From positions 1 to 24,093 of IMG/VR virus record IMGVR_UViG_3300028388_001212: a stretch of 24,093 nucleotides of DNA. One strand, 5' to 3'. Both the position numbers and the translations under genes were made by a program. Positions 1,708 to 23,127 of the stretch are shown here, one piece after another (position 1 is the stretch's first letter; every line of letters starts with the position of its first letter). The stretch comes from a virus. The notes below the pieces were generated by a model, which was not told the DNA's origin, did not search any database, and worked only from the letters and a program-made list of their open reading frames with translations.

Positions 1708-3252
1708 CTAAAATTGTGTGTACCAACTGTCCCCGAAATGATGGTCATCGTCTTGCAAGGCTTTCGGGAAGTTTCGTTCGGGGTCGTAGCCTGAGCCTTT
1801 TATCTGACTGTAAACTTCTGATACCATCTTCTCTGGGTCATCGGGGAGTTCAGCTAAGATATACCTTAGTGTGTCCATCGCATGGTTGTTGGCATCGACG
1901 GGTTTTTCACCCCGGTTTTTCTCAGCATCGAGTTCGCTTTCTTTATATTTATACTCACGACCTTCTTTGATTAAGTTCACACAGTTACTCATAATCTTGA
2001 GTTTACCTAAAGAAAAGTAAGTGTAGACTTTCATAATCCCTGAGTCAATCTGGTTAGCCGCTTCTTTAAACCACAGCCCGTACTCTGAGTAATGACTGAA
2101 GTAAGACCTAAAATCTTTACCCCGGTTTTTACCGGCTGGGTCGGCAACCACTTGACCGTTTATCATCCCGGGCGCTACACTTGATAACATGCGGTGCATT
2201 GCTTTAGCATGATAACTCACTGGCTTTTCAGCTTCATAATGTTCGTCATAAATATACATAATCCCATCTTCTGGGTCAATCGCTGCAGCAAGCATTACGG
2301 TTGGGTCACGAAGCCCAAAGTCAACTCCAAACATGCGCTTCCAAGTCGGGGGCACAATAAACGGGTCAACGATGTGTTCTGAAAACATGGGGTAAACTAA
2401 ACCTTCTGCATAATCAAACGAACCGTAAATATAGCGTTTAACCCACCAGTCGGGTTTCCCTCTACCAATCCGGGTTTGAAAATCTGGGTCTAGATATTTA
2501 TTCTGATAACTCGAATGTAAGTGGGTTGATAAAAACGGATTAGCGTTTTCATCCCTCGGGTATATCGTCGGTGCGAAGACCTTGTCCGAGTAGTGGAGAA
2601 TTCTTGTGCGAATCCAACCGACATCAGGGTTAGAACAGATGAGCCCGAGGAGTCTAGACTTCTTGACACGGTGACGGTAGACTTGTCCGTTTTCATCCCA
2701 GTCCATAATAGGCTGACCATCTTCATCATACGCATACTCCAATGCTTTTTTATTCCTTGTCCTAGCGGTAAGTTCTGTAAATACCTCAAACGCTGCGTTA
2801 CTTGCTTCTTCTAAATAAAACGCTGAAAGGTTAAGCGACCGGATTTTATCGGCATTGTTACTGGGTAATAATAAAATCTTATGTCCGTTTTTTAAAATGA
2901 CCGCTTCAGAACCCTTTGTCTTAATCTCACGTTCTATCATGGTGTCTGGTAAAAACTTCATAAGTTCTGTATAAGATGTTTCTTTTAACATTTGCATGGT
3001 TGGAGCTAACATGGCACTTAGTCCATCCTTCACTGACAAGGCATGACGAATCAGCTCCATGGTTGCAGTGGTTGTCTTCCCTGACCCATACGCTCCGAAT
3101 ATCGCTTTGAATGTATGAGTATCTTTATGGAACTCTGCTTGATGGGGCTGAGGAACATAATGGATTTCAGTGGCGTTGCAAACGTCACATACTGAATAGT
3201 TCTTTCCCTCTTTGGTAATCATCTCACCGGAGGAACATACTTTACATTTCAT
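1708..3252 (-). CDS. terL: Terminase large subunit (packaging ATPase-nuclease) with N-terminal zinc ribbon
   Basis: This 514-residue protein is the motor that pumps DNA into the prohead and cuts concatemers. In order (ATG at 3252 as residue 1) it shows a four-Cys zinc ribbon (CxxC at about 3-6 and 22-25); Walker A GAYGSGKT at 53-60; Walker B-type acidic box 'FYLEEA' with E148/E149; the coupling motif 'CSNP' at about 206-209; and an RNase H-like nuclease domain with acidic residues in 'GVDFG' (D311), 'ADPAG' (D371) and 'HAMDTLRY' (D460). All ATPase and nuclease residues are present, so the protein is probably active. The start was chosen because AGGAGG lies 5-6 bp before ATG 3252; an in-frame TTG at 3255 is too close to that site. 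It is the first gene of the leftward late unit. No small terminase gene is adjacent, which is unusual. The N-terminal zinc ribbon is a family variation and may contact DNA. Confidence 0.95.
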   Translation of the reverse strand: MKCKVCSSGEMITKEGKNYSVCDVCNATEIHYVPQPHQAEFHKDTHTFKAIFGAYGSGKTTTATMELIRHALSVKDGLSAMLAPTMQMLKETSYTELMKFLPDTMIEREIKTKGSEAVILKNGHKILLLPSNNADKIRSLNLSAFYLEEASNAAFEVFTELTARTRNKKALEYAYDEDGQPIMDWDENGQVYRHRVKKSRLLGLICSNPDVGWIRTRILHYSDKVFAPTIYPRDENANPFLSTHLHSSYQNKYLDPDFQTRIGRGKPDWWVKRYIYGSFDYAEGLVYPMFSEHIVDPFIVPPTWKRMFGVDFGLRDPTVMLAAAIDPEDGIMYIYDEHYEAEKPVSYHAKAMHRMLSSVAPGMINGQVVADPAGKNRGKDFRSYFSHYSEYGLWFKEAANQIDSGIMKVYTYFSLGKLKIMSNCVNLIKEGREYKYKESELDAEKNRGEKPVDANNHAMDTLRYILAELPDDPEKMVSEVYSQIKGSGYDPERNFPKALQDDDHHFGDSWYTQF

Positions 3253-3353
3253 CAATACCTCCTACTGCTATTATACTTGGGATTTGATTTTTTTACATGG
3301 CTGTGTGAAAGGATGTTGCTATAAATATACAGACAACTAAAGGTAAAATAATA

Positions 3354-3379
3354 GGGGGGTATTTTAAGACCCACCCCCC
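3354..3379. repeat. G6/C6 inverted repeat (7-bp stem, 12-nt loop)
   Basis: GGGGGGT at 3354-3360 pairs with ACCCCCC at 3373-3379 across a 12-nt loop. No T-run follows on the plus strand; on the minus strand a mixed T/A tract follows, which makes a weak leftward terminator possible. It could also be a structured element upstream of terL. Confidence 0.5.
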
Positions 3380-3381
3380 GT

Positions 3382-3402
3382 AAACGGCACCCCTAAGCCA
3401 TC
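3382..3402 (+). repeat. Spaced direct repeat, copy 1 (AAACGGC-N5-TAAGCCATC)
   Basis: AAACGGC (3382-3388) and TAAGCCATC (3394-3402) recur with identical 5-bp spacing at 3492-3512, 110 bp downstream. Sixteen of 21 positions are fixed and the five spacer bases differ, the pattern expected of a bipartite protein-binding site. Confidence 0.65.
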
Positions 3403-3445
3403 CGTGGTTAAGAGTGGTAGTTTAAGAGTCAATGAGTCGCCACCC

Positions 3446-3477
3446 GAGGCGAGGCGAAGGCGAGGCGAGGGCGCGGG
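3446..3477 (+). repeat. GC-rich tandem GAGGC repeat
   Basis: About four GAGGC units occur in tandem (3446, 3451, 3462 and 3467, with one extra A near 3457), ending in GCGCGGG. The stretch is strikingly GC-rich inside an AT-rich intergenic region and sits just left of the first cre-like palindrome. Function unknown. Confidence 0.6.
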
Positions 3478-3478
3478 A

Positions 3479-3492
3479 TGTAAGCGCTTACA
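3479..3492. promoter_or_regulatory. cre-like operator, perfect palindrome TGTAAGCGCTTACA
   Basis: This perfect 14-bp palindrome matches the cre consensus for CcpA (TGWAANCGNTNWCA type), as bound by LacI/GalR-family regulators. An identical copy is at 4156-4169. It lies 20 bp upstream of the -35 of the promoter at 3513. Confidence 0.6.
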
Positions 3493-3512
3493 AACGGCTT
3501 AGGTAAGCCATC
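3492..3512 (+). repeat. Spaced direct repeat, copy 2 (AAACGGC-N5-TAAGCCATC)
   Basis: This is the second copy of the element at 3382-3402, with the same spacing. It abuts the TTGACA at 3513 directly and overlaps the small inverted repeat GGCTTA/TAAGCC (3496-3509), so a protein bound here would probably touch RNA polymerase at that promoter. Confidence 0.65.
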
Positions 3513-3541
3513 TTGACAGGTCAATATCTAAATAAAATAAT
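3513..3541 (+). promoter_or_regulatory. Candidate sigma-A promoter P1 (TTGACA-17-AATAAT)
   Basis: TTGACA at 3513-3518, a 17-bp spacer, then AATAAT at 3536-3541. Transcription would start near 3548, inside the cre-like site 3547-3560, so a bound regulator would block it. It would drive the gene at 3644 together with P2. Confidence 0.5.
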
Positions 3542-3546
3542 GGGAA

Positions 3547-3560
3547 TGTAAACGTTTTCA
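3547..3560. promoter_or_regulatory. cre-like operator TGTAAACGTTTTCA
   Basis: This 14-bp element fits the cre pattern with a central CG. It ends exactly 5 bp before the -35 of the promoter at 3566, the same spacing seen between the element at 4077-4090 and the leftward promoter at 4071-4043. Confidence 0.6.
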
Positions 3561-3565
3561 AAGGG

Positions 3566-3594
3566 TTGTATTTTAGCGTGTATCGTGCTATAAT
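3566..3594 (+). promoter_or_regulatory. Sigma-A promoter P2 (TTGTAT-17-TATAAT)
   Basis: TTGTAT at 3566-3571, a 17-bp spacer, and a perfect TATAAT at 3589-3594. The start point would be near 3601, about 40 bp before the ATG at 3644. A cre-like operator lies immediately upstream. Confidence 0.75.
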
Positions 3595-3643
3595 AATAGA
3601 GTGGGTAAAAGACTACACAAAAAAATTGAAAGGTTGTGATATT

Positions 3644-3970
3644 ATGGAAAATATCAAAAAAGTTTTACAAGATTTAAATGGGATTGTTCTTAAAGAGAAC
3701 AACGGAAAAATTAACCAAGTTCAAGCAAGACAGTTAAAAACTGTCATACAAGTTGGACTTATGAAAGATTTTCAAGATTTAGGTTTTGAAGTCGGTTTCA
3801 TTCAAAAAGGGTTTATTGTTCGTGTGCCGAACGATGACCAAGGTTCACTTGTAATACAACTTGACGCAGTTATCAAGTCATTAGATTTTGATTTTGACAC
3901 TGAAATTGCGAACGAAAAAGCGAGAAAGCAAGAAATTGCCGACCGCAAGAAAAATAAAAAAGCCAAGTAA
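3644..3970 (+). CDS. Small early protein with Lys-rich tail, unknown function
   Basis: This is a 108-residue protein that I do not recognise. It begins MENIKKVLQDLNGIVLKENN, has a middle likely to be mixed alpha/beta ('GFEVGFIQKGFIVRVPND'), and ends in a strongly basic tail ('RKQEIADRKKNKKAK') that could contact nucleic acid. An earlier in-frame ATG at 3566 lies inside the P2 promoter and is not used; the start at 3644 follows a modest AAAGG site. It is monocistronic: P1/P2 upstream, and an intrinsic terminator that overlaps its last codons. An apparent small RNA is transcribed toward its 3' end from the other strand. Expression is probably early and controlled through the cre-like sites. Confidence 0.75.
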   Translation: MENIKKVLQDLNGIVLKENNGKINQVQARQLKTVIQVGLMKDFQDLGFEVGFIQKGFIVRVPNDDQGSLVIQLDAVIKSLDFDFDTEIANEKARKQEIADRKKNKKAK

Positions 3971-3985
3971 TACGGCTTTTTTTTT
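3956..3985. terminator. Bidirectional intrinsic terminator
   Basis: A6-GCC (3956-3964) pairs with GGC-T9 (3974-3985) around a loop that carries the stop codon TAA. Because it has an A-run before and a T-run after the stem, it can terminate both the rightward mRNA of the gene at 3644 and the leftward small RNA starting near 4036. Confidence 0.8.
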
Positions 3986-3994
3986 GCGATATTA

Positions 3995-4008
3995 TGAAAG
4001 CGTTTTCA
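3995..4008. promoter_or_regulatory. cre-like operator TGAAAGCGTTTTCA
   Basis: This matches the cre consensus and extends to an almost perfect 18-bp dyad (3993-4010). It lies within the transcribed part of the candidate small RNA, so it may act as a DNA operator, an RNA hairpin, or both. Confidence 0.6.
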
Positions 4009-4011
4009 TAT

Positions 4012-4031
4012 ATAGTTTGTACGCAAACTAT
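4012..4031. repeat. Perfect 8-bp inverted repeat, 4-nt loop
   Basis: ATAGTTTG (4012-4019) and CAAACTAT (4024-4031) are perfect complements around TACG. The repeat lies at the 5' end of the leftward small RNA, directly after its predicted start site, and could be an operator or a stabilising 5' hairpin. Confidence 0.7.
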
Positions 4032-4042
4032 GGTAGCGGGCG

Positions 4043-4071
4043 ATTATACCACAGGTTAAGGGCTTTGTCAA
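4043..4071 (-). promoter_or_regulatory. Perfect-consensus leftward sigma-A promoter (TTGACA-17-TATAAT)
   Basis: Read on the minus strand, TTGACA (4071-4066), a 17-bp spacer and TATAAT (4048-4043) match the consensus at every position. Start point near 4036. The cre-like element 4077-4090 lies 5 bp upstream of the -35. Confidence 0.8.
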
Positions 4072-4076
4072 GCGGT

Positions 4077-4090
4077 TGGAAGCGTTTTCA
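4077..4090. promoter_or_regulatory. cre-like operator TGGAAGCGTTTTCA
   Basis: One mismatch (G at position 3) from the cre pattern. It sits 5 bp upstream of the leftward -35, mirroring the site/promoter arrangement at 3547-3594. The centre is at about -47 for both promoters. Confidence 0.55.
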
Positions 4091-4120
4091 TTTTTTATTT
4101 TGACCCCCGCCAAGATTGCG

Positions 4121-4136
4121 CTACTAATGACACGGT
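4121..4136 (+). repeat. Direct repeat copy 1, CTACTAATGACACGGT
   Basis: Fifteen of 16 bases match the copy at 4234-4249 (offset 113 bp). Each copy lies 30-45 bp after a cre-like element, so the two halves of this region look like a degenerate duplication. Confidence 0.6.
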
Positions 4137-4155
4137 TTAGTCCACGGACTGCGAA

Positions 4156-4169
4156 TGTAAGCGCTTACA
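4156..4169. promoter_or_regulatory. cre-like operator, perfect palindrome TGTAAGCGCTTACA
   Basis: Identical to the palindrome at 3479-3492. No promoter element is visible within 30 bp on either strand, so its target is unclear. A related but weaker dyad, TGAAAACCTTTTCA, with CC instead of CG at its centre, is at 4200-4213. Confidence 0.6.
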
Positions 4170-4233
4170 CAATCTTTGAGGTGCTTTTCATAAACTAAGT
4201 GAAAACCTTTTCATTCCACCTGATAAGATGAGT

Positions 4234-4249
4234 CTACTAATGGCACGGT
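4234..4249 (+). repeat. Direct repeat copy 2, CTACTAATGGCACGGT
   Basis: Second copy of the repeat at 4121-4136, with one base changed. It follows the degenerate cre-like dyad at 4200-4213. Confidence 0.6.
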
Positions 4250-4578
4250 ATGGGCTAAGAAATCACCTTTTCAAAAATTTTTCCAAAAAGTGGCATCTAT
4301 ACAAAATTAAAAAAAGTGCGAAATGCACACCGAAACTATACAATTTTACCCGAATACTCATTCAGGTTTGTAATACATGGCGCAATTTTTACACATATCT
4401 AAATATAGGGTATGATATATAAGGGAGGTGGGGGGTCTTATTTTATTATATAATATATTATACTATTATTACAAAACGTATACTTTCACTATACATTTTT
4501 ATCATTTTTTAAAAACACATATATGCTGATTTTCACGCCCCCGCCCCAAACCACCGCATTCTGGGCATATCACAAAAC
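4250..4578. other. Non-coding AT-rich stretch flanked by G- and C-runs
   Basis: No gene is supported here. A possible promoter (TTTACA 4388-4393, 17 bp, TATGAT 4411-4416) is followed by AAGGGAGG but no start codon at usable spacing. About 4440-4540 is extremely AT-rich, with alternating TA tracts. A G-run (4426-4436) and C-rich segments (about 4537-4553) bracket it and are partly complementary. The AT-rich tract next to repeats is what an origin unwinding region might look like, but that is conjecture. Confidence 0.4.
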
Positions 4579-4607
4579 TTGTAATTTACCCTGATATGTA
4601 GTATAAT
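4579..4607 (+). promoter_or_regulatory. Sigma-A promoter P3 (TTGTAA-17-TATAAT)
   Basis: TTGTAA at 4579-4584, a 17-bp spacer, TATAAT at 4602-4607; start near 4614. The first transcribed bases form the hairpin described for 4613-4703. Confidence 0.75.
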
Positions 4608-4612
4608 ATTTA

Positions 4613-4703
4613 TGTAGGGGAAATCCTACCGCTTCACGTTTGCCAAGAACAAGGGCTCCATTAAAACAAGCTATTCACAGTTCTTGACTTTCACCGTGAA
4701 GTG
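4613..4703 (+). ncRNA. Candidate structured RNA or 5' leader with nested stems
   Basis: Starting at the P3 start point, the RNA can form a 5-bp hairpin (4614-4618 with 4625-4629). It can then form a 9-bp outer stem (4630-4638 with 4695-4703, one G-U pair) enclosing a perfect 7-bp inner stem (4644-4650 with 4680-4686). These paired arms are exact complements over 7 bp each, which is unlikely by chance in nested order. There is no terminator directly after it, so it may be the leader of the 27-aa gene at 4731. The 3' arm also contains the -35 and spacer of promoter P4. No known riboswitch was recognised. Confidence 0.45.
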
Positions 4704-4712
4704 ATGTATAAT
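4684..4712 (+). promoter_or_regulatory. Sigma-A promoter P4 (TTGACT-17-TATAAT)
   Basis: TTGACT at 4684-4689, a 17-bp spacer, TATAAT at 4707-4712; start near 4719. It gives a very short leader (about 12 nt) to the ATG at 4731. Confidence 0.75.
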
Positions 4713-4730
4713 AGTTAGGGGGTTAATAAT

Positions 4731-4814
4731 ATGATAGAAAAAATTGAAAAAGTATTAGTTATTATGTTCCTTGTAGTGATGTTTGCGAGTATCTTGACAA
4801 ATATCGCAATGTAG
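4731..4814 (+). CDS. 27-aa hydrophobic peptide
   Basis: The ATG at 4731 follows TTAGGGGGTTAATAAT and a near-consensus promoter, and the frame ends at TAG 4812-4814. The peptide starts MIEKIEKVL and continues as a single hydrophobic segment (VIMFLVVMFASILTNIAM), so it is probably a one-pass membrane peptide. Size and composition resemble small phage membrane peptides and type I toxin peptides, but no family can be named. Its last codons contain the -35 and spacer of the next promoter (P5). Support comes from the promoter, the G-rich ribosome binding site and the spacing; conservation cannot be judged here. Confidence 0.55.
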   Translation: MIEKIEKVLVIMFLVVMFASILTNIAM

Positions 4815-4822
4815 TGTATAAT
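4794..4822 (+). promoter_or_regulatory. Perfect-consensus sigma-A promoter P5 (TTGACA-17-TATAAT)
   Basis: TTGACA at 4794-4799 and TATAAT at 4817-4822, spacer 17 bp; start near 4829. The promoter overlaps the end of the 27-aa gene. Its spacer is very like that of the promoter at 6038-6066. Confidence 0.85.
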
Positions 4823-4855
4823 ATGTATATAAGATAAAAAAGGGGGAAAGAAATT

Positions 4856-5050
4856 ATGACATTATTAGAATTAGCCAACAAAGTGGGGAATACTACTAAA
4901 ATCTACACCAAGACTGACATCAACGATAAGTTTGTATTACTTGGCTCGGCTGCCGATATTCGTGAGTCCGACAACACGCAAGAAGTTGTTATATTCTCAG
5001 CGTCTGCGGGTCGTTTAAATGTCCGTGTCAAAGACACAGTCGTAGCATAG
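4856..5050 (+). CDS. Small early protein (64 aa), unknown function
   Basis: This protein begins MTLLELANKVGNTTKIYTKT and has alternating hydrophobic stretches ('KFVLLGSAADI', 'QEVVIFSASAGRLNVRVKD') that suggest a small beta-rich fold. The ATG has AAAGGGGGAAAG upstream and is served by the perfect-consensus promoter P5, about 27 bp away, so it is probably among the most strongly expressed early genes. No domain, Cys pair or membrane segment is visible. It begins a run of five to six small genes ending at the terminator near 6020. Highly expressed small early phage proteins often act on host enzymes, but no target can be inferred here. Confidence 0.75.
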   Translation: MTLLELANKVGNTTKIYTKTDINDKFVLLGSAADIRESDNTQEVVIFSASAGRLNVRVKDTVVA

Positions 5051-5113
5051 TATTAGACCTGAGTATGTCTATAAACTACTCCAACCTTTCATACCATTTA
5101 TAGGGGGTATTAT

Positions 5114-5308
5114 ATGTTTACTTATGTAATTCGTTTAAGCAATCAAGGAGATTTGCTTTACAGAAATGCTGATAACTCTTGGGGTTCAACGAGGAACTTT
5201 GACAAAGCCACTAAGTTTGAAACAAGACAAGACGCAAGAGAGTATATGAGCAACCAAGCCGTGCGTTATATTTATGCGGATGCTCAAACAGAGGCAGTGT
5301 CAATCTAA
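5114..5308 (+). CDS. Small protein (64 aa), possible paralogue of the 5333 product
   Basis: The start ATG follows ATAGGGGGTATT. The protein begins MFTYVIRLSNQGDLLYRNAD and continues with 'FDKATKFETRQDAREYM', a pattern (short N-terminal strand, then 'A..F.T...A...') common to unnamed small phage proteins. The next gene has the same length and the same order of elements (YVI-L-G-L, then an 'ATR-LTKAQA' segment), so the pair could be an old duplication. It lies in the small-gene cluster, 63 bp after the previous stop. No catalytic or metal-binding residues are evident; function unknown. Confidence 0.7.
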   Translation: MFTYVIRLSNQGDLLYRNADNSWGSTRNFDKATKFETRQDAREYMSNQAVRYIYADAQTEAVSI

Positions 5309-5332
5309 TTTCGTTCCAAGAAGGAGATACGA

Positions 5333-5527
5333 ATGGCAATGTATGTGATAATGCTTGATACAGGCAAGTTCTTAGTTGAACTGCCTTTTGCTTATAAGTA
5401 TGGTGGCGTGATGGAAGCCACAAGATATTTAACGAAAGCACAAGCAAAGAAAGCAACAAAGACATTGGGGACTAAATCTCAATGGATTAAATCTAAGATT
5501 GTGGAGGTAGATTATGGAAATCGGTAA
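5333..5527 (+). CDS. Small basic protein (64 aa), possible paralogue of the 5114 product
   Basis: The ATG at 5333 has a strong AAGGAGAT site. The protein starts MAMYVIMLDTGKFLVELPFA and has a Lys/Ala-rich helix ('LTKAQAKKATKTLGTKSQWI'), with basic residues dominating its second half. Length, the YVI.L start and the 'ATRYLTKAQA' segment parallel the preceding gene. Its last 14 bases overlap the next gene, so translation is probably coupled. Function unknown; the basic helix could bind nucleic acid. Confidence 0.7.
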   Translation: MAMYVIMLDTGKFLVELPFAYKYGGVMEATRYLTKAQAKKATKTLGTKSQWIKSKIVEVDYGNR

Positions 5528-5717
5528 TATCGTGACGCTCAAAGATATTAGAGTGTCCGAGTATTTTAGTTTGGAAGAAGAAGTGCGTGAAGACTATCAC
5601 TTGTTTTTTGGTGAAGTCGGTGTATTAAATTGGGCAGATGATGCGATAGTAAGAATAGGCTTTGTTCGTGATTCGATTGACTTTCCAATTTATTTAGTGG
5701 AGCGCGTTGATGAATGA
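5514..5717 (+). CDS. Small acidic, probably beta-barrel protein (67 aa)
   Basis: The ATG at 5514 follows GTGGAGGTAGATT and overlaps the upstream gene by 14 bp. The protein begins MEIGNIVTLKDIRVSEYFSL and carries 'GEVGVLNWADDAIVRIGFV'. The pattern of 'I G n V T L' followed by 'G x V' and a short strand resembles KOW/SH3-like small barrels, as does the N-terminus of the protein at 9911 ('MQIGDKVKII...SGVILDI'). That similarity is by eye and weak. It is acidic overall and ends 'YLVERVDE'. No enzymatic residues; function unknown. Confidence 0.7.
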   Translation: MEIGNIVTLKDIRVSEYFSLEEEVREDYHLFFGEVGVLNWADDAIVRIGFVRDSIDFPIYLVERVDE

Positions 5718-5892
5718 TAACGCAGAAGTCTTAAAGCAACTCACTGAATGGTCTATTAGAGTTGATAATCTAAGAAGTCAGCTCATCTTATCAAGCCCAT
5801 TAGAAAAAGAAAGGGAAGAATACCTTGACTTAGTGGAGAAAATTAAGTTCATAATGGAGGAGTTGATAATCTATGAAGAAGACGAGTATTAA
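5710..5892 (+). CDS. Small acidic helical protein (60 aa)
   Basis: The ATG at 5710 is preferred over the in-frame TTG at 5707 because GGAG ends 7 bp before it. The gene overlaps the upstream one by 8 bp. The product starts MNDNAEVLKQLTEW and is predicted to be almost entirely helical, with a probable coiled coil ('LEKEREEYLDLVEKIKFIM') and a very acidic end ('IYEEDEY'). No known domain. It is followed, with a 20-bp overlap, by a strongly basic 47-aa gene, so an acidic/basic pair of partners is conceivable but unproven. Confidence 0.65.
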   Translation: MNDNAEVLKQLTEWSIRVDNLRSQLILSSPLEKEREEYLDLVEKIKFIMEELIIYEEDEY

Positions 5893-6016
5893 GAAAGCCA
5901 ACGTTAGTCATTTCGCCCATCAATACCACATTAAAAAGTCTAACGCAACGGGGGCACACAAGAATTACAAGAAAATCATTCCAAGGAAGGCTAAATATAA
6001 GAGGTCCTATGATTAG
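5873..6016 (+). CDS. Strongly basic 47-aa protein
   Basis: The frame ATG 5873 to TAG 6016 encodes a peptide beginning MKKTSIKKANVSHFAHQYHI and ending 'IIPRKAKYKRSYD'. About a third of the residues are Lys or Arg, with several His; there is no membrane segment. GGAGGAG lies about 12 bp upstream of the ATG, somewhat far but usable. It overlaps the previous gene by 20 bp, and its stop lies within the terminator stem, as expected for the last gene of a transcription unit. Composition suggests binding to nucleic acid or an acidic partner; function unknown. Confidence 0.55.
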   Translation: MKKTSIKKANVSHFAHQYHIKKSNATGAHKNYKKIIPRKAKYKRSYD

Positions 6017-6027
6017 GGCTTTTTTAT
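6001..6027 (+). terminator. Intrinsic terminator ending the small-gene cluster
   Basis: GGTCCTA (6003-6009) pairs with TAGGGCT (6014-6020), including one internal and one terminal G-U pair, around a TGAT loop. A run of T residues follows (6020-6025). It separates the small-gene unit from the promoter at 6038. Confidence 0.65.
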
Positions 6028-6037
6028 TGCCCGCTAC

Positions 6038-6066
6038 TTGACAAATAGCGCAAAGTGTAGTATAAT
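6038..6066 (+). promoter_or_regulatory. Perfect-consensus sigma-A promoter P6 of the amidoligase unit
   Basis: TTGACA at 6038-6043, a 17-bp spacer, TATAAT at 6061-6066; start near 6073. The spacer shares AATA-CGCAA and TGTAG-type blocks with the P5 spacer, beyond what sigma-A recognition needs. Confidence 0.85.
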
Positions 6067-6106
6067 ATAATAGTAGAAAAATAATTTACAAAGGGGGGCA
6101 CATTAT

Positions 6107-8458
6107 ATGATGAATGGCATCAAGGAGTTCAATTTCACAAAAGAACTCTTAATCAGCTACGATGACAAAATCAGTCAGTTTGATGAGTTAGTCAAGTTAT
6201 CTTTTGACGTTGACAAACCCGTTTACGACTCACTCAAAGATTTTAATTTCAAAAAGATTGAGCTTGTTTTGGACTCAGAAAATAATTCAGACAAGCAAGT
6301 CACCGCACAGTTTACAAGCACCAACCGTCCGTATAACATTACGTTAGATATAGTTAACGGCTATTTGAGAGAACTTAATCAGTACTCTCGTATTTCAGGC
6401 GATTCAATAGAGCAAATTGACAAGTTTTTAGAACAACAAATTGCCGAGAATCCAGGTCGTTTTAGAAAGCACGACCTAACCGTGAACAAAATGGCACGGC
6501 TTTTTAACGAAGCCTTTGCTTATCAAGCATTGCGTGCTTACGCATTCATAAAAGACAATCCATTGTTTACGACTTGGAGCTACACAGGTTTACAAGAGTA
6601 TAACTCTGACTTGTTATCAACCAGAACTGACATATCATTTAGATATACTCCACCAACCCTTCATCAACTTGAAGGTGCAAGCAATGTAATCAGCAACATT
6701 TTTGAAGGTTTTACAAACCACACTTCTTACTCACAGTCAAGAACTATTAACACAATTCGTAACCTTGTGTCGCACGTTATTGCTGGTGCGGGTTCTAATC
6801 AAGACCTTTACCAAAGGTTATACAAAGAAGGTGTTTTAAGGTTTACCTATCACGATGTATCACCCATTACCTTAATTGGTTTTGGTATGGTTATTCGTTC
6901 AACACTTTATACCGAAGAAGACGTTGACAAGTCTGTGTTGTTAAAAGACTCTAACTACATCACCAAAGTCTATGTCCCTATCTCAGAGACCAAAACCGCA
7001 CTGGTAAGCATTGCTTCTATGTTCGGTAATGACATTGACCGTGATAACTTTATCGCATACATCAAAACAGACGCACCGCCAATTCAAACCCCAGGCGGTT
7101 TATATCAATTTGACCTCAACCGTTGTAAGTTTACTAAGCATTGGTTTTTAGCCAACGGTCATAGAAGTGCTTTGACTGTTTATAACAAGCAATCACTTTC
7201 CAATTTCACAGGCGTCCGCACAAGAAGTATCTCGCCTACTACAAGATTTTTCGCAGAGTATGTATCTTCTGTGATAGAGAGCATTATCACAACAAATTCT
7301 TGCGACCATTGTGGTTCAAGAGTTTACGAACTCAATGGCTTAAACATTGACCATTTTGACTTACAAGATATTGTCAAAGAACGTTTACAAGATGTGATAA
7401 TCTTTGACCCAGATGCCTACATCCACCGTAACACCAGAGTTAAACTAGTCTACAACCATGAGCTTGGTAAAAAGATTTGTCAAATATGTGCGGTGAATTA
7501 CGAGGAATCTATGAGCCGATATAACGGTTATTTCAGCAAGGGTTATTTCTACTCAGAAGATGGTATCACTTCCAAAGACCAAATAGAATGTCCTGAGCAT
7601 ATGTATCTAAAAGATTATGACTACTCACCAGACTCTTTATACAGACTAAGTTCAGGTGATGTCAACCCTAACTTAGGTGTTGAGTTAGAAGTAGATGTTT
7701 TAAACTTAAACTACGATGACGATGACGACGAGCATTATGGCGATGCTGACTTAGGTGTTGACAGAGCCGTTGGTATGACTATGAGTTTACTGACTCGTGG
7801 TAAGGAACACGCTTACGCTATGCACGATGGTTCATTGCGTGATGGTTTTGAGATTGCCACTTACCCCGCAGATATTTACAAGCATATGGACACATCTCAT
7901 TTCAATTACAAACCTGCCTTTAAGAACATTGTTAAAGCAGGCTATCGTGGTCACGAAGCAGGCACCGCAGGGCTTCACATTCACCTTGACCGTGACTTCT
8001 TTGGCGACTCTACTTCCGACCAGCTCTACCGTGCTTCACTTATGGCATATATTATGGAGTCTAACTGGGAAGACTTTGTTAAGTTCTCTCGTCGTAGATA
8101 CCACCACCTTGACCAGTGGGCATCTAAGAAAGACTTAAAGTATCGTGTAGATACTAACTCAGTAAAAACTAACGAACAAGTTGCCAGAGATTTTGTCAAC
8201 GAGTATGATATGGACAAGTATGTAGCGTTTAACATCAACCACATGCACACGTTCGAGCTTCGTATCTTCCGTTCAACGCTTAACTATAACACTTACATAG
8301 CAACATTACAATTTGTTCACAATCTTGCTAAGCTTGTCAAAGAGATTGACTTAGCACAAGCACAAGTTATTACATTCAAAGATATTATAAAATATGAAGA
8401 GCATTCCGAACTCAACACTTATGTTGGTCAGCGTTTCGGTAATGACTACTTAAACTAA
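6107..8458 (+). CDS. Large zinc-binding putative amidoligase (GS-fold COOH-NH2 ligase)
   Basis: This 783-residue protein has two visible parts. Residues 1-395 match no family I recognise. Residues 399-461 contain two CxxC pairs (CDHC 399-402, CQIC 458-461), a likely zinc site. From about 520 to the end it carries the signature order of the 'putative amidoligase' family, COOH-NH2 ligases with a glutamine-synthetase-like fold: 'GVELEVD' (524-530), 'DGSL' with E582 (574-582), 'GTAGLHIHLD' (619-628), and 'FELRIFRSTLN' (716-726). An acidic insert, 'YDDDDDEHYGDADLG', follows the first motif. The family is ATP-dependent and joins a carboxyl to an amine; the substrate here is unknown. The ATG at 6107 follows AGGGGGG (a second ATG is at 6110). 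It is the first gene after promoter P6, and 13 bp upstream of a class II glutamine amidotransferase, the expected ammonia supplier. Confidence 0.75.
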   Translation: MMNGIKEFNFTKELLISYDDKISQFDELVKLSFDVDKPVYDSLKDFNFKKIELVLDSENNSDKQVTAQFTSTNRPYNITLDIVNGYLRELNQYSRISGDSIEQIDKFLEQQIAENPGRFRKHDLTVNKMARLFNEAFAYQALRAYAFIKDNPLFTTWSYTGLQEYNSDLLSTRTDISFRYTPPTLHQLEGASNVISNIFEGFTNHTSYSQSRTINTIRNLVSHVIAGAGSNQDLYQRLYKEGVLRFTYHDVSPITLIGFGMVIRSTLYTEEDVDKSVLLKDSNYITKVYVPISETKTALVSIASMFGNDIDRDNFIAYIKTDAPPIQTPGGLYQFDLNRCKFTKHWFLANGHRSALTVYNKQSLSNFTGVRTRSISPTTRFFAEYVSSVIESIITTNSCDHCGSRVYELNGLNIDHFDLQDIVKERLQDVIIFDPDAYIHRNTRVKLVYNHELGKKICQICAVNYEESMSRYNGYFSKGYFYSEDGITSKDQIECPEHMYLKDYDYSPDSLYRLSSGDVNPNLGVELEVDVLNLNYDDDDDEHYGDADLGVDRAVGMTMSLLTRGKEHAYAMHDGSLRDGFEIATYPADIYKHMDTSHFNYKPAFKNIVKAGYRGHEAGTAGLHIHLDRDFFGDSTSDQLYRASLMAYIMESNWEDFVKFSRRRYHHLDQWASKKDLKYRVDTNSVKTNEQVARDFVNEYDMDKYVAFNINHMHTFELRIFRSTLNYNTYIATLQFVHNLAKLVKEIDLAQAQVITFKDIIKYEEHSELNTYVGQRFGNDYLN

Positions 8459-8471
8459 GGGGGAATTATTT

Positions 8472-9458
8472 ATGTGTGTAATCGCATTCGCACCAAAAAA
8501 TGTTGACATTCCAAAAGACGAAGTAATGTCAGATATGTTTGACTATAACTCAGATGGCGCAGGTATTGCCTATACTTTAAACAACCGTGTCTATGTAGAA
8601 AAAGGTTATATGGAGTATAAAGAGTTTGCTAATGCTCTTGCTGGCATTGAAAAACGCCTCAAAAAAGCAGGTACTAGCACCAAAGAAGTTCCTATGGCAT
8701 TTCACTTTCGTATCGGTACCCACGGTCCTAACAGTCGTGGCTTGACTCACCCATTTCCAGTTGCTCAGAAGACAAAGTTCTTCGATGCGCTCGACTACAA
8801 GACTGACATCATGATGATGCACAACGGTATTATCACTAGCGTAACTCCTGTCAACAATACTTCTGACACCGTTCAGTATATTCGTGATGTCGTTCACCCA
8901 CTCTACATTCAAGACAAAAAGTTCTTTACCAACGACAACTATACTCGCTTGCTTTCCAATACCATCAACGGCTCTCGTCTATTATTCTTAGATAGAGATG
9001 GCGACTTCTCAATTATAGGTGACTGGAAAACTGACAAGAACTCACCAGGCGTGTTCTTCTCTAACCTTAACCATAACTATACTTACTCTATGCCTTATCG
9101 CTTCAAGTATGGTTCAAGCTGTGCTTATGATAGCAACATTGGAGAAAAGATTAGAGTAAAAAAGTTGCCAGATGGCTTCTTCCGTGGCGTTGGTGGTAAG
9201 AAATCTCTTGCCGCTAACGAAGTTGCCAGGGTCGAGTCCAACTTACTTATCGACTACTATGTAGATTACTTAGGTTATGTGTATCACGATATTACAGGCA
9301 ACGGCTCTGACAAAATTACACCTGCTATCTATTATGACACCGCATATATGGATTCTGGAGACAAATATGTGATGATTACTTCCGCAAGTAAGGAGTTAGA
9401 CGATGTCGAAACTGTCGAACGAGAAGTTATTGAAGACGACTACTTCTCATACTATTAA
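8472..9458 (+). CDS. Class II (Ntn-type) glutamine amidotransferase
   Basis: This 328-residue protein probably hydrolyses glutamine and passes ammonia to a partner ligase. It starts Met-Cys-Val-Ile, so removal of Met leaves Cys as the N-terminal nucleophile. Glutamine-site motifs of the family follow in order: 'NSDGAG' (26-31), 'HFRIGTHGP' (78-86, with the Arg and Thr that bind glutamine), 'THPFP' (92-96), 'MMHNGII' (115-121, the Asn-Gly oxyanion/amide pair) and 'SDTVQ' (131-135, Asp for the amino group). The remaining ~150 residues match no synthetase domain, so the acceptor enzyme must be separate. The neighbouring amidoligase (13 bp upstream) is the obvious candidate. GGGGGAATT precedes the ATG. 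Its last 56 bp overlap the sigma-like gene. Confidence 0.8.
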   Translation: MCVIAFAPKNVDIPKDEVMSDMFDYNSDGAGIAYTLNNRVYVEKGYMEYKEFANALAGIEKRLKKAGTSTKEVPMAFHFRIGTHGPNSRGLTHPFPVAQKTKFFDALDYKTDIMMMHNGIITSVTPVNNTSDTVQYIRDVVHPLYIQDKKFFTNDNYTRLLSNTINGSRLLFLDRDGDFSIIGDWKTDKNSPGVFFSNLNHNYTYSMPYRFKYGSSCAYDSNIGEKIRVKKLPDGFFRGVGGKKSLAANEVARVESNLLIDYYVDYLGYVYHDITGNGSDKITPAIYYDTAYMDSGDKYVMITSASKELDDVETVEREVIEDDYFSYY

Positions 9459-9927
9459 AGATTTAGAACCCCTCATCTACTCAGTCTTACACAAGACACA
9501 CTTTTGGAGCATCTTCCCTTCTTATAGGGAAGACTTCCTCCAAGAAGGTCGTATGGCAATTCAAAAAGCCATTGAGAGTTTCAATGAAGGGGGCAAAGTG
9601 AAACTAAGCACATACGCATATGTGCTTATTCGCAATGCGGTGTATGACTATGCGAACAAAATGAAGCTACACTATCAGTATAAGACACTGCCACTTAACG
9701 AAAATCTTGTTGAAAATAATCGGCACATTGATTTAACTGCCGCATATATTGTGAGTGAGATGCGTGATAGTGAGTATTATGAATGGCTAAGGGATTACTT
9801 TATCTACGAAGACTCACAATCCACGATTGCCAAGCGTTATAATACTAATCAACAAAACGTATCAAGAATTATTGTAGAGTTTAGAGAATATATGAGAAAG
9901 GAGTTAAAAGATGCAAATTGGCGATAA
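9403..9927 (+). CDS. Sigma-70-family-like transcription factor
   Basis: This 174-residue protein resembles short alternative sigma factors. Residues about 20-86 look like region 2: 'LEPLIYSVL', then 'EDFLQEGRMAIQKAIESF' (the D-QEG--A--A---F pattern of region 2.2, core binding), then 'LSTYAYVLIRNAVYDYANK' (STYA--IR-A---Y, regions 2.3/2.4 that melt and read the -10). Residues about 135-168 form a helix-turn-helix-like region 4 ('STIAKRYNTNQQNVSRIIV'). The ATG at 9403 lies inside the previous gene but has AAGGAG 7 bp upstream, which fixes the start. It would redirect host RNA polymerase, most plausibly to the late leftward genes, whose upstream region lacks a good sigma-A promoter; that target is inferred. 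A non-sigma role for a region-2-like fold cannot be excluded. Confidence 0.75.
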   Translation: MSKLSNEKLLKTTTSHTIKDLEPLIYSVLHKTHFWSIFPSYREDFLQEGRMAIQKAIESFNEGGKVKLSTYAYVLIRNAVYDYANKMKLHYQYKTLPLNENLVENNRHIDLTAAYIVSEMRDSEYYEWLRDYFIYEDSQSTIAKRYNTNQQNVSRIIVEFREYMRKELKDANWR

Positions 9928-10228
9928 AGTAAAAATTATACAAGAAGACGCACCGTATAATAGTTCAGGTAAATCAGGGGTCATCCTTGATATTGATTAT
10001 GATAAACAAACTTGGTACTGGGTTAGGTTTGACAAACCAAACGATGACTTACCTTACGAAAGCTGGTTTGTGAAAGAGCATTTAGAAACAGAGCCAACCG
10101 ATTATTTCAAGCGTAAATTAGAGAGCAATGGAGCATTCATTAAGGTGTGGGACACTATGGTCAATGACCCAGATGAGGTCAAGAAGTTAAAGGAGTTGTT
10201 TGGAACTGAGTTCGAACACATTAAATAA
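9911..10228 (+). CDS. Small protein with KOW/SH3-like N-terminus (105 aa)
   Basis: The gene starts at an ATG preceded by AAAGGAGTTAAAAG and overlaps the sigma-like gene by 17 bp. The N-terminal ~55 residues have a small beta-barrel pattern ('MQIGDKVKII', 'GKSGVILDIDYDKQTWYWVR', 'ESWFVKEHLE'), like many phage and host KOW/SH3-type modules that often bind nucleic acid or RNA polymerase. The rest is charged and helical. Co-translation with a sigma-like factor makes a transcription role conceivable, but this is inference. Its stop TAA shares its last A with a candidate ATT start of the next gene. Confidence 0.65.
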   Translation: MQIGDKVKIIQEDAPYNSSGKSGVILDIDYDKQTWYWVRFDKPNDDLPYESWFVKEHLETEPTDYFKRKLESNGAFIKVWDTMVNDPDEVKKLKELFGTEFEHIK

Positions 10229-10644
10229 TTGTTGCTGAGTTCTTAGCCCTTAGCTTACCCAATGTAAGTTTGACCCCACTTTTGTTTGCCGTTTACTTTT
10301 CGGCAAGGGGCTACAAACAATCTCTGTATTTAATTACGGTCTATATGGCAGTCGAGATTTTACAATGGGGCTTTGGGCTATGGAACCTGCCCATGTTTTT
10401 AGGTTGGACTTTGTGGATGGTAATGGTTAAGAGTATTAAACTACCGATACCTTTTTTAGGCTTTACTTTTGGGTATTTATATGGTATAATGTTTATGCCT
10501 TTAACGGTTATTGTCTACAACGTTGACTGGTGGGCATACTTAGTCGCTGACTTCCCATACGCAACGACTATGGCAGTAAGCAACACCATTACGCTTATGT
10601 TTTTACATAAAGTTTTAACAAAGTTCTTGACAGAACGCTCATAG
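10228..10644 (+). CDS. Small polytopic membrane protein, apparent ATT start
   Basis: The open frame begins at 10225 after an in-frame stop. The first ordinary start is TTG at 10270, which has no ribosome binding site and would cut into a continuous hydrophobic N-terminus. Starting at ATT 10228, which overlaps the upstream stop as TAATT, gives a natural start (MVAEFLALSLPNVSLTPLLF) and 138 residues with about four membrane segments. The pattern, including 'GFGLWNLPMFLGW', 'GFTFGYLYGIMF' and the C-terminal 'DFPYATTMAVSNTITLMFL', is reminiscent of S components of ECF vitamin transporters, but this is weak and by eye. It could supply a cofactor such as B12 for the class II reductase, which is speculation. 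Its last codons contain the promoter at 10627. If the ATT start is wrong the gene is 10270-10644. Confidence 0.55.
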   Translation: MVAEFLALSLPNVSLTPLLFAVYFSARGYKQSLYLITVYMAVEILQWGFGLWNLPMFLGWTLWMVMVKSIKLPIPFLGFTFGYLYGIMFMPLTVIVYNVDWWAYLVADFPYATTMAVSNTITLMFLHKVLTKFLTERS

Positions 10645-10655
10645 TATGGTATAAT
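10627..10655 (+). promoter_or_regulatory. Perfect-consensus sigma-A promoter P7
   Basis: TTGACA at 10627-10632, 17-bp spacer, TATAAT at 10650-10655; start near 10662. It lies at the end of the membrane-protein gene and drives 10684 and probably the long replication unit beyond. Confidence 0.85.
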
Positions 10656-10683
10656 AGTATTATAATAATAAAGGGGGTAGCAA

Positions 10684-10923
10684 ATGAATAAGTATGAAGA
10701 AGCAAAGAAAGTATGGAATAATCGTATTGAAGAAGCAAAGGTAGAAAAATCCAAAGCGGTTGATGTATTAAAAAGTATGAATCAAACATTGTGGGGTCTT
10801 TGGATGGGCAAGTTAGACAGTACAGCTATGGAGTTTTACAGTTGGTTAGCAGAACAAAAAAAAGGGTTTGAGTCTTATATGCGAGAGCATAATATTGTAG
10901 AAGGCTCATTGAGTGCAACTTAA
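10684..10923 (+). CDS. Small helical protein (79 aa), unknown function
   Basis: The ATG follows AAAGGGGGTAGCAA and is the first start after promoter P7. The protein begins MNKYEEAKKVWNNRIEEAKV and looks mostly helical, with a Trp-rich middle ('QTLWGLWMGKLDSTAMEFYSW'). There are no Cys pairs and no clear membrane segment. It is the leader gene of what looks like a long replication operon, and its stop TAA overlaps the next ATG (TAATG), giving translational coupling. Function unknown. Confidence 0.7.
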   Translation: MNKYEEAKKVWNNRIEEAKVEKSKAVDVLKSMNQTLWGLWMGKLDSTAMEFYSWLAEQKKGFESYMREHNIVEGSLSAT

Positions 10924-11066
10924 TGTGCACAATGAAACTAATAACACCCATAGATGTTTACAACGAGGCACAAAGATTACGATTTAACGGAGACCTTGAA
11001 AGTTATAGGGACTACTTAGATAAATACAAGGAGCTGGTGCGTTATAAAACTACCCGAGAAAGCTGA
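10923..11066 (+). CDS. Small charged protein (47 aa)
   Basis: This frame starts at an ATG that overlaps the upstream TAA (TAATG coupling) and ends at TGA 11064-11066. It encodes MCTMKLITPIDVYNEAQRLR and then 'GDLESYRDYLDKYKELVRYK'. A second in-frame ATG is at 10932. There is little independent ribosome binding site, as expected for coupled translation. The peptide is helical and charged with no recognisable domain. Its 3' end contains an AAGGAG (11028-11033) that appears to serve the next gene. Confidence 0.55.
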   Translation: MCTMKLITPIDVYNEAQRLRFNGDLESYRDYLDKYKELVRYKTTRES

Positions 11067-21174: not shown

Positions 21175-23127
21175 ATGTGGGACAATTTAGATGAACGGCA
21201 AGAAGTCGTTCTCTCCAAGTACAAGAAAAAAGGCGAGACACATGAGGAGTTTATTGAGCGTATTAGTTTAGGCGATAAAGAACTCTATGAGATATTTAAA
21301 AATAAAGAAGGTTTATGGGGTGGTCGTAACCTCTATGCCATCGGTAGAGAAGGAAACATCACGGGCTCTAACTGCTATGTCGCTACTGACCCAGAAGATA
21401 GTCTCGAAGACATCTACCGTGCTGACTACCATTTAGCTAGGACTTACAGCTATGGTGGTGGGCAAGGTTTAAACTTATCTAAGATTAGACCTAAGGATGC
21501 TAAGGTAAATAACACCTCAAGCACAAGTCCAGGACCGATGGTGTTTGCTGAGAAGTATTCACACACTACCTTAAATACGCAACAGGCTAAGCGTAGAGGG
21601 GCTTTAATGCTCATGATGAACATTGACCACCCCGATGTATTAGACTTCGCTACAGCCAAGCTAGACCTCACTAAAATCAATGGGGCTAATATCTCCTTAG
21701 CTATGACTGATGACTTTATTAAAGCCGCAGCTAACGATGAAATGTGGGAGATGAGTTTTGAAACTCCATACGAAGTTATTACAAAACGTGTGAGAGCTAG
21801 AGACTTAATGGAAGTCATTGCGTATGCTAACCACACCATGGGTGACCCTGGAATGATATTCATTGATAATGTCAATAACTACCATTTACTCAGTGAGTAC
21901 CCTGATGTTAAGTTCACAGCAACTAACCCCTGTGGTGAGCAACCACTTATGGCGAATGGTTCTTGTAACTTAGGCTCTGTAAACCTATATGCGTTCGTAC
22001 GCAAACCATTTACCGAAGATGCTTACTTTGATGCTAGCAGATTTGCACATGTCGTCAAACACATGACATGGGGCTTAGACGAGCTTTTAACTATGTTGGG
22101 TGATAGACATGCACTTCAAGAACAAAGAGACCATGTAGGACAGTGGAGAGAAGTAGGACTAGGTGTCATGGGTCTTGCTGATTTAGCTTTAGGTATGGGC
22201 ATGGCTTACGGTAGCGAGCCTTTCATTGAACTTTTAGATGACATCATGAAGCTCATGGCAAACGCAGCAGCTCAAGCCAGTGCTATGAGAGCACAACACT
22301 ACGGCTCATTTGAGCGCTATGACTATGACCTTGTTAGTAAATCTGTCTTCTTCAACCATGCTTACACAGAAGAAACTAAGAGTATGATTAAACAGTTTGG
22401 TCTTCGTAACTCTCGTATCTTATCTATCGCACCGACTGGGTCAATTAGTAATGTGTTAGGTGTCTCAGGTGGGGTGGAACCATTCTTCATGTTAGGTTAT
22501 AACCGCACCATTCAAAGTATGTTTGAAGCTGAGAAGACCATTACAGTGTGGGAGAAAACTCCTAAGGCACTTGCAGCTCACCTTAAAATTGATAGCATTG
22601 ACGAACTTCCTGAGTGGGCAAAAGTCACCAGCCAAAACATTGACTTCGATGACCGTGCCGCTGTTCAAGCAACCATTCAAAACTATGTTGATACTGCCAT
22701 TAGCTCTACCTTTAACTTAAACAACGATGCCACAGTCGATGACATCATTGACATTTACTTTAAAGCACATGAGTATGGTCTTAAAGGTGCAACTGTGTTT
22801 AGAGATAACTGTGCTAAGGTTGGTATTCTTTCTGGGACAAGTGGTTGGCAAGCAGATAAAAACCCTGCGGTTGCCCCTCGCATCCTAGTTCAAGAAACTT
22901 GGTATGATAAAGAAACTAAAGAAACAAAAGAGTTCACTAAGCCATACGAGATTAAGGGAGACGCTGTTATAAAGATTGAGGATGAAGCAATTCTTACACC
23001 ACCTACAACCGTTTATAACAACGAGATGTTGGATGTGTGTCCGATATGTGGGGCACCATTAGTTAAAAGAAATGGATGCACAGAGTGTATCGAACCAGAA
23101 TGTGATTATGCGAGGTGTGATGTTTAA
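21175..23127 (+). CDS. nrdJ: Class II (adenosylcobalamin-dependent) ribonucleotide reductase
   Basis: This 650-residue enzyme reduces ribonucleotides to deoxyribonucleotides for phage DNA synthesis. Seen in order: 'ITGSNCYVA' with redox Cys C67; 'NPCGEQPL' (251-258) with the radical-site Cys C253 and Glu E255; 'GSCNLGSVNL' with C264, the partner of C67; and the phosphate loop 'APTGSISNVLG'. A cysteine-rich tail ('DVCPICGAPLVKRNGCTECI' and 'CDYARC') provides the shuttle thiols and/or a zinc site. There is no ATP-cone at the N-terminus, so allosteric control of overall activity is probably absent. No small radical subunit or glycyl-radical site is present, which points to class II. It works without oxygen but needs B12 from the host. 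AAAGGAG precedes the ATG. It is coupled to a MazG-like gene. Confidence 0.9.
   Translation: MWDNLDERQEVVLSKYKKKGETHEEFIERISLGDKELYEIFKNKEGLWGGRNLYAIGREGNITGSNCYVATDPEDSLEDIYRADYHLARTYSYGGGQGLNLSKIRPKDAKVNNTSSTSPGPMVFAEKYSHTTLNTQQAKRRGALMLMMNIDHPDVLDFATAKLDLTKINGANISLAMTDDFIKAAANDEMWEMSFETPYEVITKRVRARDLMEVIAYANHTMGDPGMIFIDNVNNYHLLSEYPDVKFTATNPCGEQPLMANGSCNLGSVNLYAFVRKPFTEDAYFDASRFAHVVKHMTWGLDELLTMLGDRHALQEQRDHVGQWREVGLGVMGLADLALGMGMAYGSEPFIELLDDIMKLMANAAAQASAMRAQHYGSFERYDYDLVSKSVFFNHAYTEETKSMIKQFGLRNSRILSIAPTGSISNVLGVSGGVEPFFMLGYNRTIQSMFEAEKTITVWEKTPKALAAHLKIDSIDELPEWAKVTSQNIDFDDRAAVQATIQNYVDTAISSTFNLNNDATVDDIIDIYFKAHEYGLKGATVFRDNCAKVGILSGTSGWQADKNPAVAPRILVQETWYDKETKETKEFTKPYEIKGDAVIKIEDEAILTPPTTVYNNEMLDVCPICGAPLVKRNGCTECIEPECDYARCDV

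What the first reader, a model, noticed from the sequence alone, without database searches (positions are those of the whole stretch)
6038..9458. Amidoligase plus class II glutaminase: a probable glutamine-fed modification system with its own promoter
A 783-aa protein ending in the amidoligase signature (GVELEVD, DGSL, GLHIHLD, FRSTLN) sits 13 bp before a class II glutamine amidotransferase that keeps every glutamine-site residue but lacks its own synthetase domain. Established: the amidoligase family is predicted to make amide or peptide bonds from ATP, a carboxylate and an amine; class II amidotransferases supply ammonia from glutamine. Inferred: the two act together to amidate a target such as cell-wall peptide, a protein or a modified base. 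The ~395-residue N-terminal part and the four-Cys zinc site of the first protein are not explained by the known family and may hold the target specificity.
Basis: partly seen in the sequence, partly recalled or inferred. Interest (0 to 1): 0.85.

Follow-up and report, generated by a model that had tools for sequence, protein, structure and literature searches.

The report
Phage amidoligase–glutaminase gene pair
A bacterial virus carries two adjacent genes that together look like a glutamine-fueled enzyme for putting amide groups on some target; this pairing is already known from many phages, so it is an ordinary (though experimentally untested) system with one unusual feature, a long front part with no known relatives.

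Summary
A 783-aa ORF (6107-8458) ends in a glutamine-synthetase-fold amidoligase domain (PF12224; best PDB fold matches YbdK, glutamine synthetase, GmaS, Dop/PafA). A 328-aa class II glutaminase (GlmS/GFAT-like, residues 1-204, catalytic set complete) starts 13 bp later. A 12/12 sigma-70 promoter lies upstream. But the pair is not new: it is annotated in OM43, Marvin and LUZ24-like phages, and later papers credit the idea of cell-wall modification to Iyer et al. 2009. The four-Cys zinc site is also ordinary: most relatives carry CxxC modules before the amidoligase core. What remains unexplained is residues 1-395, for which no relative was found, not even in the nearest syntenic phage (which has its own unrelated extension). 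Best reading: a two-component, glutamine-dependent amidoligase that amidates a carboxylate on a target chosen by the variable N-terminal part; target unknown. New member of a known kind.

The parts
5999..6028 (+). terminator-like hairpin and T run that ends the upstream unit
   Evidence: fold of 5990-6037, -13.9 kcal/mol, z -2.3; not listed by the terminator scan
6038..6066 (+). sigma-70 type promoter TTGACA-17-TATAAT
   Evidence: 12/12 consensus match; shares TTGACAAATAnCGCAAnGT with the promoter at 4794
6107..8458 (+). amidoligase gene, 783 aa
   Evidence: PF12224 E 3.6e-5; fold matches YbdK/GS
6107..7291 (+). N-terminal extension, residues 1-395, no detectable relative
   Evidence: no significant hit in Pfam, PHROGs, phage tblastn, IMG/VR, or relatives' ORFs; pLDDT mostly <50
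7301..7489 (+). Cys4 zinc-binding-type module (C399, C402, C458, C461)
   Evidence: direct reading; CxxC modules in the same place in most relatives
7673..8455 (+). glutamine-synthetase-fold amidoligase domain, residues about 523-783
   Evidence: mostly pLDDT >75 with large parts >90; PDB fold matches YbdK, GS, GmaS, Dop
8472..9458 (+). class II glutaminase gene, 328 aa; catalytic domain residues 1-204, C-terminal tail unassigned
   Evidence: profile hits GlmS/PurF; fold hits GFAT/GlmS; pLDDT >85 over 1-200, <50 after 205
9403..9927 (+). sigma-70-like factor gene overlapping the end of the glutaminase gene; same order in the nearest phage relative
   Evidence: PF04542; TIGR02937; synteny in L008

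Best explanation
A two-component glutamine-dependent amidoligase. The small protein hydrolyses glutamine at its N-terminal cysteine (after Met removal) and releases ammonia; the C-terminal GS-fold domain of the large protein uses ATP to activate a carboxylate (acyl phosphate) and joins it to that ammonia, giving a carboxamide. The zinc module and the variable N-terminal part of the large protein would hold the target. Shown by computation: the folds, the catalytic residues, and the linkage of the two genes. Inferred: that the proteins act together, that ammonia (not another amine) is the nucleophile, and the target. Target estimates (my judgement, not measured): peptidoglycan precursor peptide 0.35, a host or phage protein 0.3, a small metabolite 0.2, nucleic acid 0.15.
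For: PF12224 match; PDB fold matches YbdK E 1e-4, glutamine synthetase, GmaS, Dop, PafA; invariant acidic/His/Arg set across 50 relatives; glutaminase fold and profile matches to GlmS/GFAT/PurF with complete Cys/Arg/His-Asn-Gly/Asp set; glutaminase stands alone, with no synthetase domain found in the same chain; gene pair kept in 65/79 IMG/VR and 76/80 bacterial-genome loci; 130 distinct close same-strand pairs, many overlapping by 1 bp, with correlated distances (Mantel r 0.89, best of 999 permutations 0.16; viral only 0.62); amidoligase-glutaminase-sigma order kept in the nearest phage relative.
Against: No biochemistry was found for any phage pair. One Clostridioides phage/plasmid-like lineage and a few other records keep the amidoligase with no detectable glutaminase in the record, so the glutaminase is not obligatory everywhere. 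Distance correlation can come from shared inheritance alone. No complex was modelled. The window glutaminase itself does not reach Pfam's GATase models.
Confidence: 0.68

Rival explanations
1. The amidoligase joins an amino acid, peptide or other amine (not ammonia) to its target, giving an isopeptide or gamma-glutamyl bond; the class II enzyme then supplies glutamate or handles gamma-glutamyl groups rather than acting as an ammonia source.
For: PDB fold neighbours include YbdK (carboxylate-amine ligase), GmaS and PafA/Dop, whose acceptors are amines rather than ammonia; some other phage and Tn6164 amidoligases sit beside AIG2/GGCT-like genes; some lineages have no glutaminase.
Against: In class II enzymes of known function the glutaminase passes on ammonia; no GGCT gene was recognised beside this pair.
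Confidence: 0.2
2. The two enzymes make a small molecule (a metabolite) rather than modify a macromolecule.
For: Amidoligases and glutaminases can act on metabolites; the family was proposed for synthesis of novel metabolites (title of Iyer 2009, cited in PMC10580990).
Against: Zinc modules and long variable N-terminal parts fit a macromolecular target better; no consistent third biosynthetic enzyme in the viral or genomic neighbourhoods.
Confidence: 0.2
3. The genes are linked by chance or by shared regulation only, and work separately.
For: Some lineages keep the amidoligase alone.
Against: Close same-strand pairing across very different phages and mobile elements.
Confidence: 0.05

Closest known systems
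Phage amidoligase (PF12224) + class II glutamine amidotransferase pairs: OM43 phages MEP401/402, mycobacteriophage Marvin, Pseudomonas phages tf/UFV-P2 (LUZ24-like), podovirus MW202733
   Same: Amidoligase with a class II glutaminase gene next to or near it, with the same motifs; zinc-type cysteines before the core in MEP401, Marvin and MW202733
   Different: The window protein has a 395-residue N-terminal part without detectable relatives and one Cys4 site; LUZ24-like phages also carry ATP-grasp, COOH-NH2 ligase and AIG2 genes nearby, not seen here
YbdK / gamma-glutamylcysteine ligase-like and glutamine synthetase folds (1r8g, 8fbp), PafA/Dop
   Same: Fold of the C-terminal domain
   Different: About 8-15% identity; substrates of the phage enzyme unknown
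GlmS/GFAT and PurF glutaminase domains
   Same: Class II glutaminase fold and catalytic residues
   Different: Stand-alone, no synthetase domain; unassigned tail of about 125 residues
MurT-GatD (Staphylococcus aureus peptidoglycan glutamate amidation, PMC3267633)
   Same: Two-gene glutamine-dependent amidation in concept
   Different: MurT resembles Mur ligases (PMC3267633 abstract) and, from general knowledge, GatD is a class I-type glutaminase; different folds

Membership tests
Amidoligase_2 (PF12224) | Pfam profile at or above gathering score | tested here: met
   24.2 bits vs cut-off 22; 49 of the 50 aligned sequences, the window's included, also match
Amidoligase_2 (PF12224) | Glutamine-synthetase-like fold | tested here: met
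   AlphaFold model, Foldseek to YbdK/GS/GmaS/Dop
Amidoligase_2 (PF12224) | ATP-dependent amide-bond formation | not testable with these tools
   needs purified protein
Class II glutamine amidotransferase (Ntn) | Cys directly after initiator Met plus Arg, HNG, Asp of the glutamine site | tested here: met
   C2, R80, H117-N118-G119, D132 conserved in 36 sequences
Class II glutamine amidotransferase (Ntn) | Fold/profile match to GlmS/PurF glutaminase | tested here: met
   Pfam match absent for the window member alone, present in many relatives
Phage amidoligase-glutaminase pair | Adjacent, co-directional genes | tested here: met
   13 bp apart; 65/79 and 76/80 relatives have both
Phage amidoligase-glutaminase pair | Zinc-type module before the amidoligase core (common, not universal) | tested here: met
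   C399/C402/C458/C461; 61/91 viral and 83/84 genomic ORFs or pieces with >=2 CxxC
Phage amidoligase-glutaminase pair | Joint glutamine-dependent activity | not testable with these tools
   no measured activity found in the papers held
MurT-GatD | Mur-ligase domain and class I glutaminase | tested here: not met
   GS fold and class II glutaminase instead

The most novel reading that the evidence does not exclude
Residues 1-395 are a new, fast-evolving target-recognition domain of the kind that is exchanged between phage amidoligases (L008, L048 and MEP401 have their own, mutually undetectable extensions) while the core and the glutaminase stay, so that the pair is an amidation engine with interchangeable specificity parts.
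Probability: 0.2. Interest if true: 0.55.

Novelty: new member of a known kind. Interest (0 to 1): 0.3.

Why it matters
Amidoligase-glutaminase pairs are common in phages and in mobile elements of gut Clostridia, yet no paper found here reports a measured activity or target. If the pair amidates host cell-wall peptides or proteins it would be a widespread phage tool, perhaps for superinfection exclusion. This member adds a long N-terminal part as a candidate specificity element.

Tried and rejected
Single-protein scans of IMG/VR for the full protein, the glutaminase and the N-terminal part found no relative; profile-based scans did for the amidoligase. A scan with the neighbouring AAA protein found only the one sister phage already known. 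hhalign of the N-terminal parts of the window, L008, L048 and MEP401 gave no signal above a helicase control. AlphaFold did not give a usable N-terminal model, so its fold was not searched on its own. PDB sequence search with the window protein alone found nothing. PADLOC: no defence family for the two genes. No RNA family in the window. No consistent third gene in the viral neighbourhoods. Literature searches for a tested function found only predictions; Iyer 2009 and the Marvin paper are not held, so their content is cited second-hand. The idea that the four-Cys site is new to this protein was rejected.

Full report
Observation. The window is a 24,093-base virus record. Both genes, the 13-bp gap, the motifs, the four cysteines and the promoter are present as described. 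The promoter scores 12/12 and follows a terminator-like hairpin. Promoter-like matches are frequent in this AT-rich region (37 found vs 24 expected, all strengths), but only four 12/12 sites occur in 3200-11000. No match better than 10/12 lies inside the unit, and the glutaminase gene's end overlaps a sigma-70-like gene (9403-9927), so a promoter-amidoligase-glutaminase-sigma unit is likely (inference).

Large protein. Pfam places PF12224 at residues 602-738. An AlphaFold model from 50 sequences is confident over most of 523-783 and poor before about 390. Foldseek against the PDB returns YbdK, its Salmonella homolog, glutamine synthetases, a GS homolog, GmaS, then Dop and PafA: the GS/GCS fold. 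Sixteen columns are invariant in 50 relatives, including acidic, His and Arg residues of the kind expected at this fold's nucleotide and metal sites (the assignment of roles is from general knowledge of the fold).

Small protein. A six-sequence profile matches GlmS and PurF glutaminases in the PDB (E 8e-11). The model is confident over 1-204 and matches GFAT/GlmS; the rest (205-328) is not modelled. No synthetase domain was found.

Linkage. Profile scans gave 79 IMG/VR loci and 80 bacterial-genome loci, selected for amidoligase similarity, not for the glutaminase. A glutaminase lies within the fetched flank in 65 of 79 and 76 of 80 (three of the four others end within 140 bp of the amidoligase). 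In 130 distinct loci the genes are same-strand and -79 to +224 bp apart, often overlapping by 1 bp. Distances correlate (Mantel r 0.886 overall, 0.618 viral only; best of 999 permutations of the full set 0.161), as expected of a unit inherited together; this is not proof of interaction. Several records, mainly one Clostridioides lineage, lack a detectable glutaminase (records may be fragments).

Nearest relative. L008 (IMGVR_UViG_3300042366_000770) has the same order: amidoligase, glutaminase, sigma factor, further genes, helicase, AAA protein. Identities: amidoligase core 37%, glutaminase 36%, sigma factor 37%, AAA protein 64%. The parts before the core (523 residues in the window, about 346 in L008) are not detectably related.

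Zinc site and N-terminal part. CxxC modules before the core are the rule in relatives and some resemble LIM or double zinc ribbons. The window has a minimal version. Residues 1-395 gave no significant match anywhere tried.

Mechanism. Folds and residues fit a glutamine-fed amidation: glutaminase releases ammonia, the GS-fold domain activates a carboxylate with ATP and adds the ammonia. That the two proteins work together is inferred from linkage and family knowledge. The target is unknown; a macromolecule or a cell-wall precursor is favoured because of the zinc module and the long variable N-terminal part, which is an argument, not a test.

Known or new. Amidoligase plus glutaminase is annotated in OM43 phages (PMC10580990), LUZ24-like phages (PMC3890496), Pseudomonas phage tf (PMC3517423) and Marvin-type phages (roles quoted in PMC10580990). 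PMC10580990 and PMC11318856 attribute to Iyer et al. 2009 the idea that the system of phage phiEco32 modifies the cell wall and keeps out other phages; that paper was not available here. Hence: a new member of a known kind, with an unexplained N-terminal part.

Noticed in passing
window 3479-4213: Seven cre-like palindromes (TGWAANCGNTTWCA, up to one mismatch; CcpA/LacI-family type), all between the minus-strand terminase gene and the early genes, where 0.43 are expected in the whole window. One (3787) lies in an ORF. None in the sister phage stretch L008.
   Followed up: partly
window 4794-4822 and 6038-6066: Two 12/12 sigma-70 promoters that also share TTGACAAATAnCGCAAnGT, suggesting a repeated early promoter module.
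   Followed up: partly
L088-L167: In gut Clostridia genomes relatives of the pair sit near a serine recombinase (46 of 80 loci), DUF960 (29) and a MobA-type relaxase (17), i.e. apparently on mobile elements.
   Followed up: partly
L004, L012, L019, L021, L024, L027, L029, L041, L069, L081: Amidoligase homologs in records with no detectable glutaminase anywhere in the record.
   Followed up: partly
window 21175-23127: Phage ribonucleotide reductase large chain with a C-terminal cysteine-rich tail.
   Followed up: no
L026, L009, L014: Some phages carry two amidoligase genes close together.
   Followed up: no
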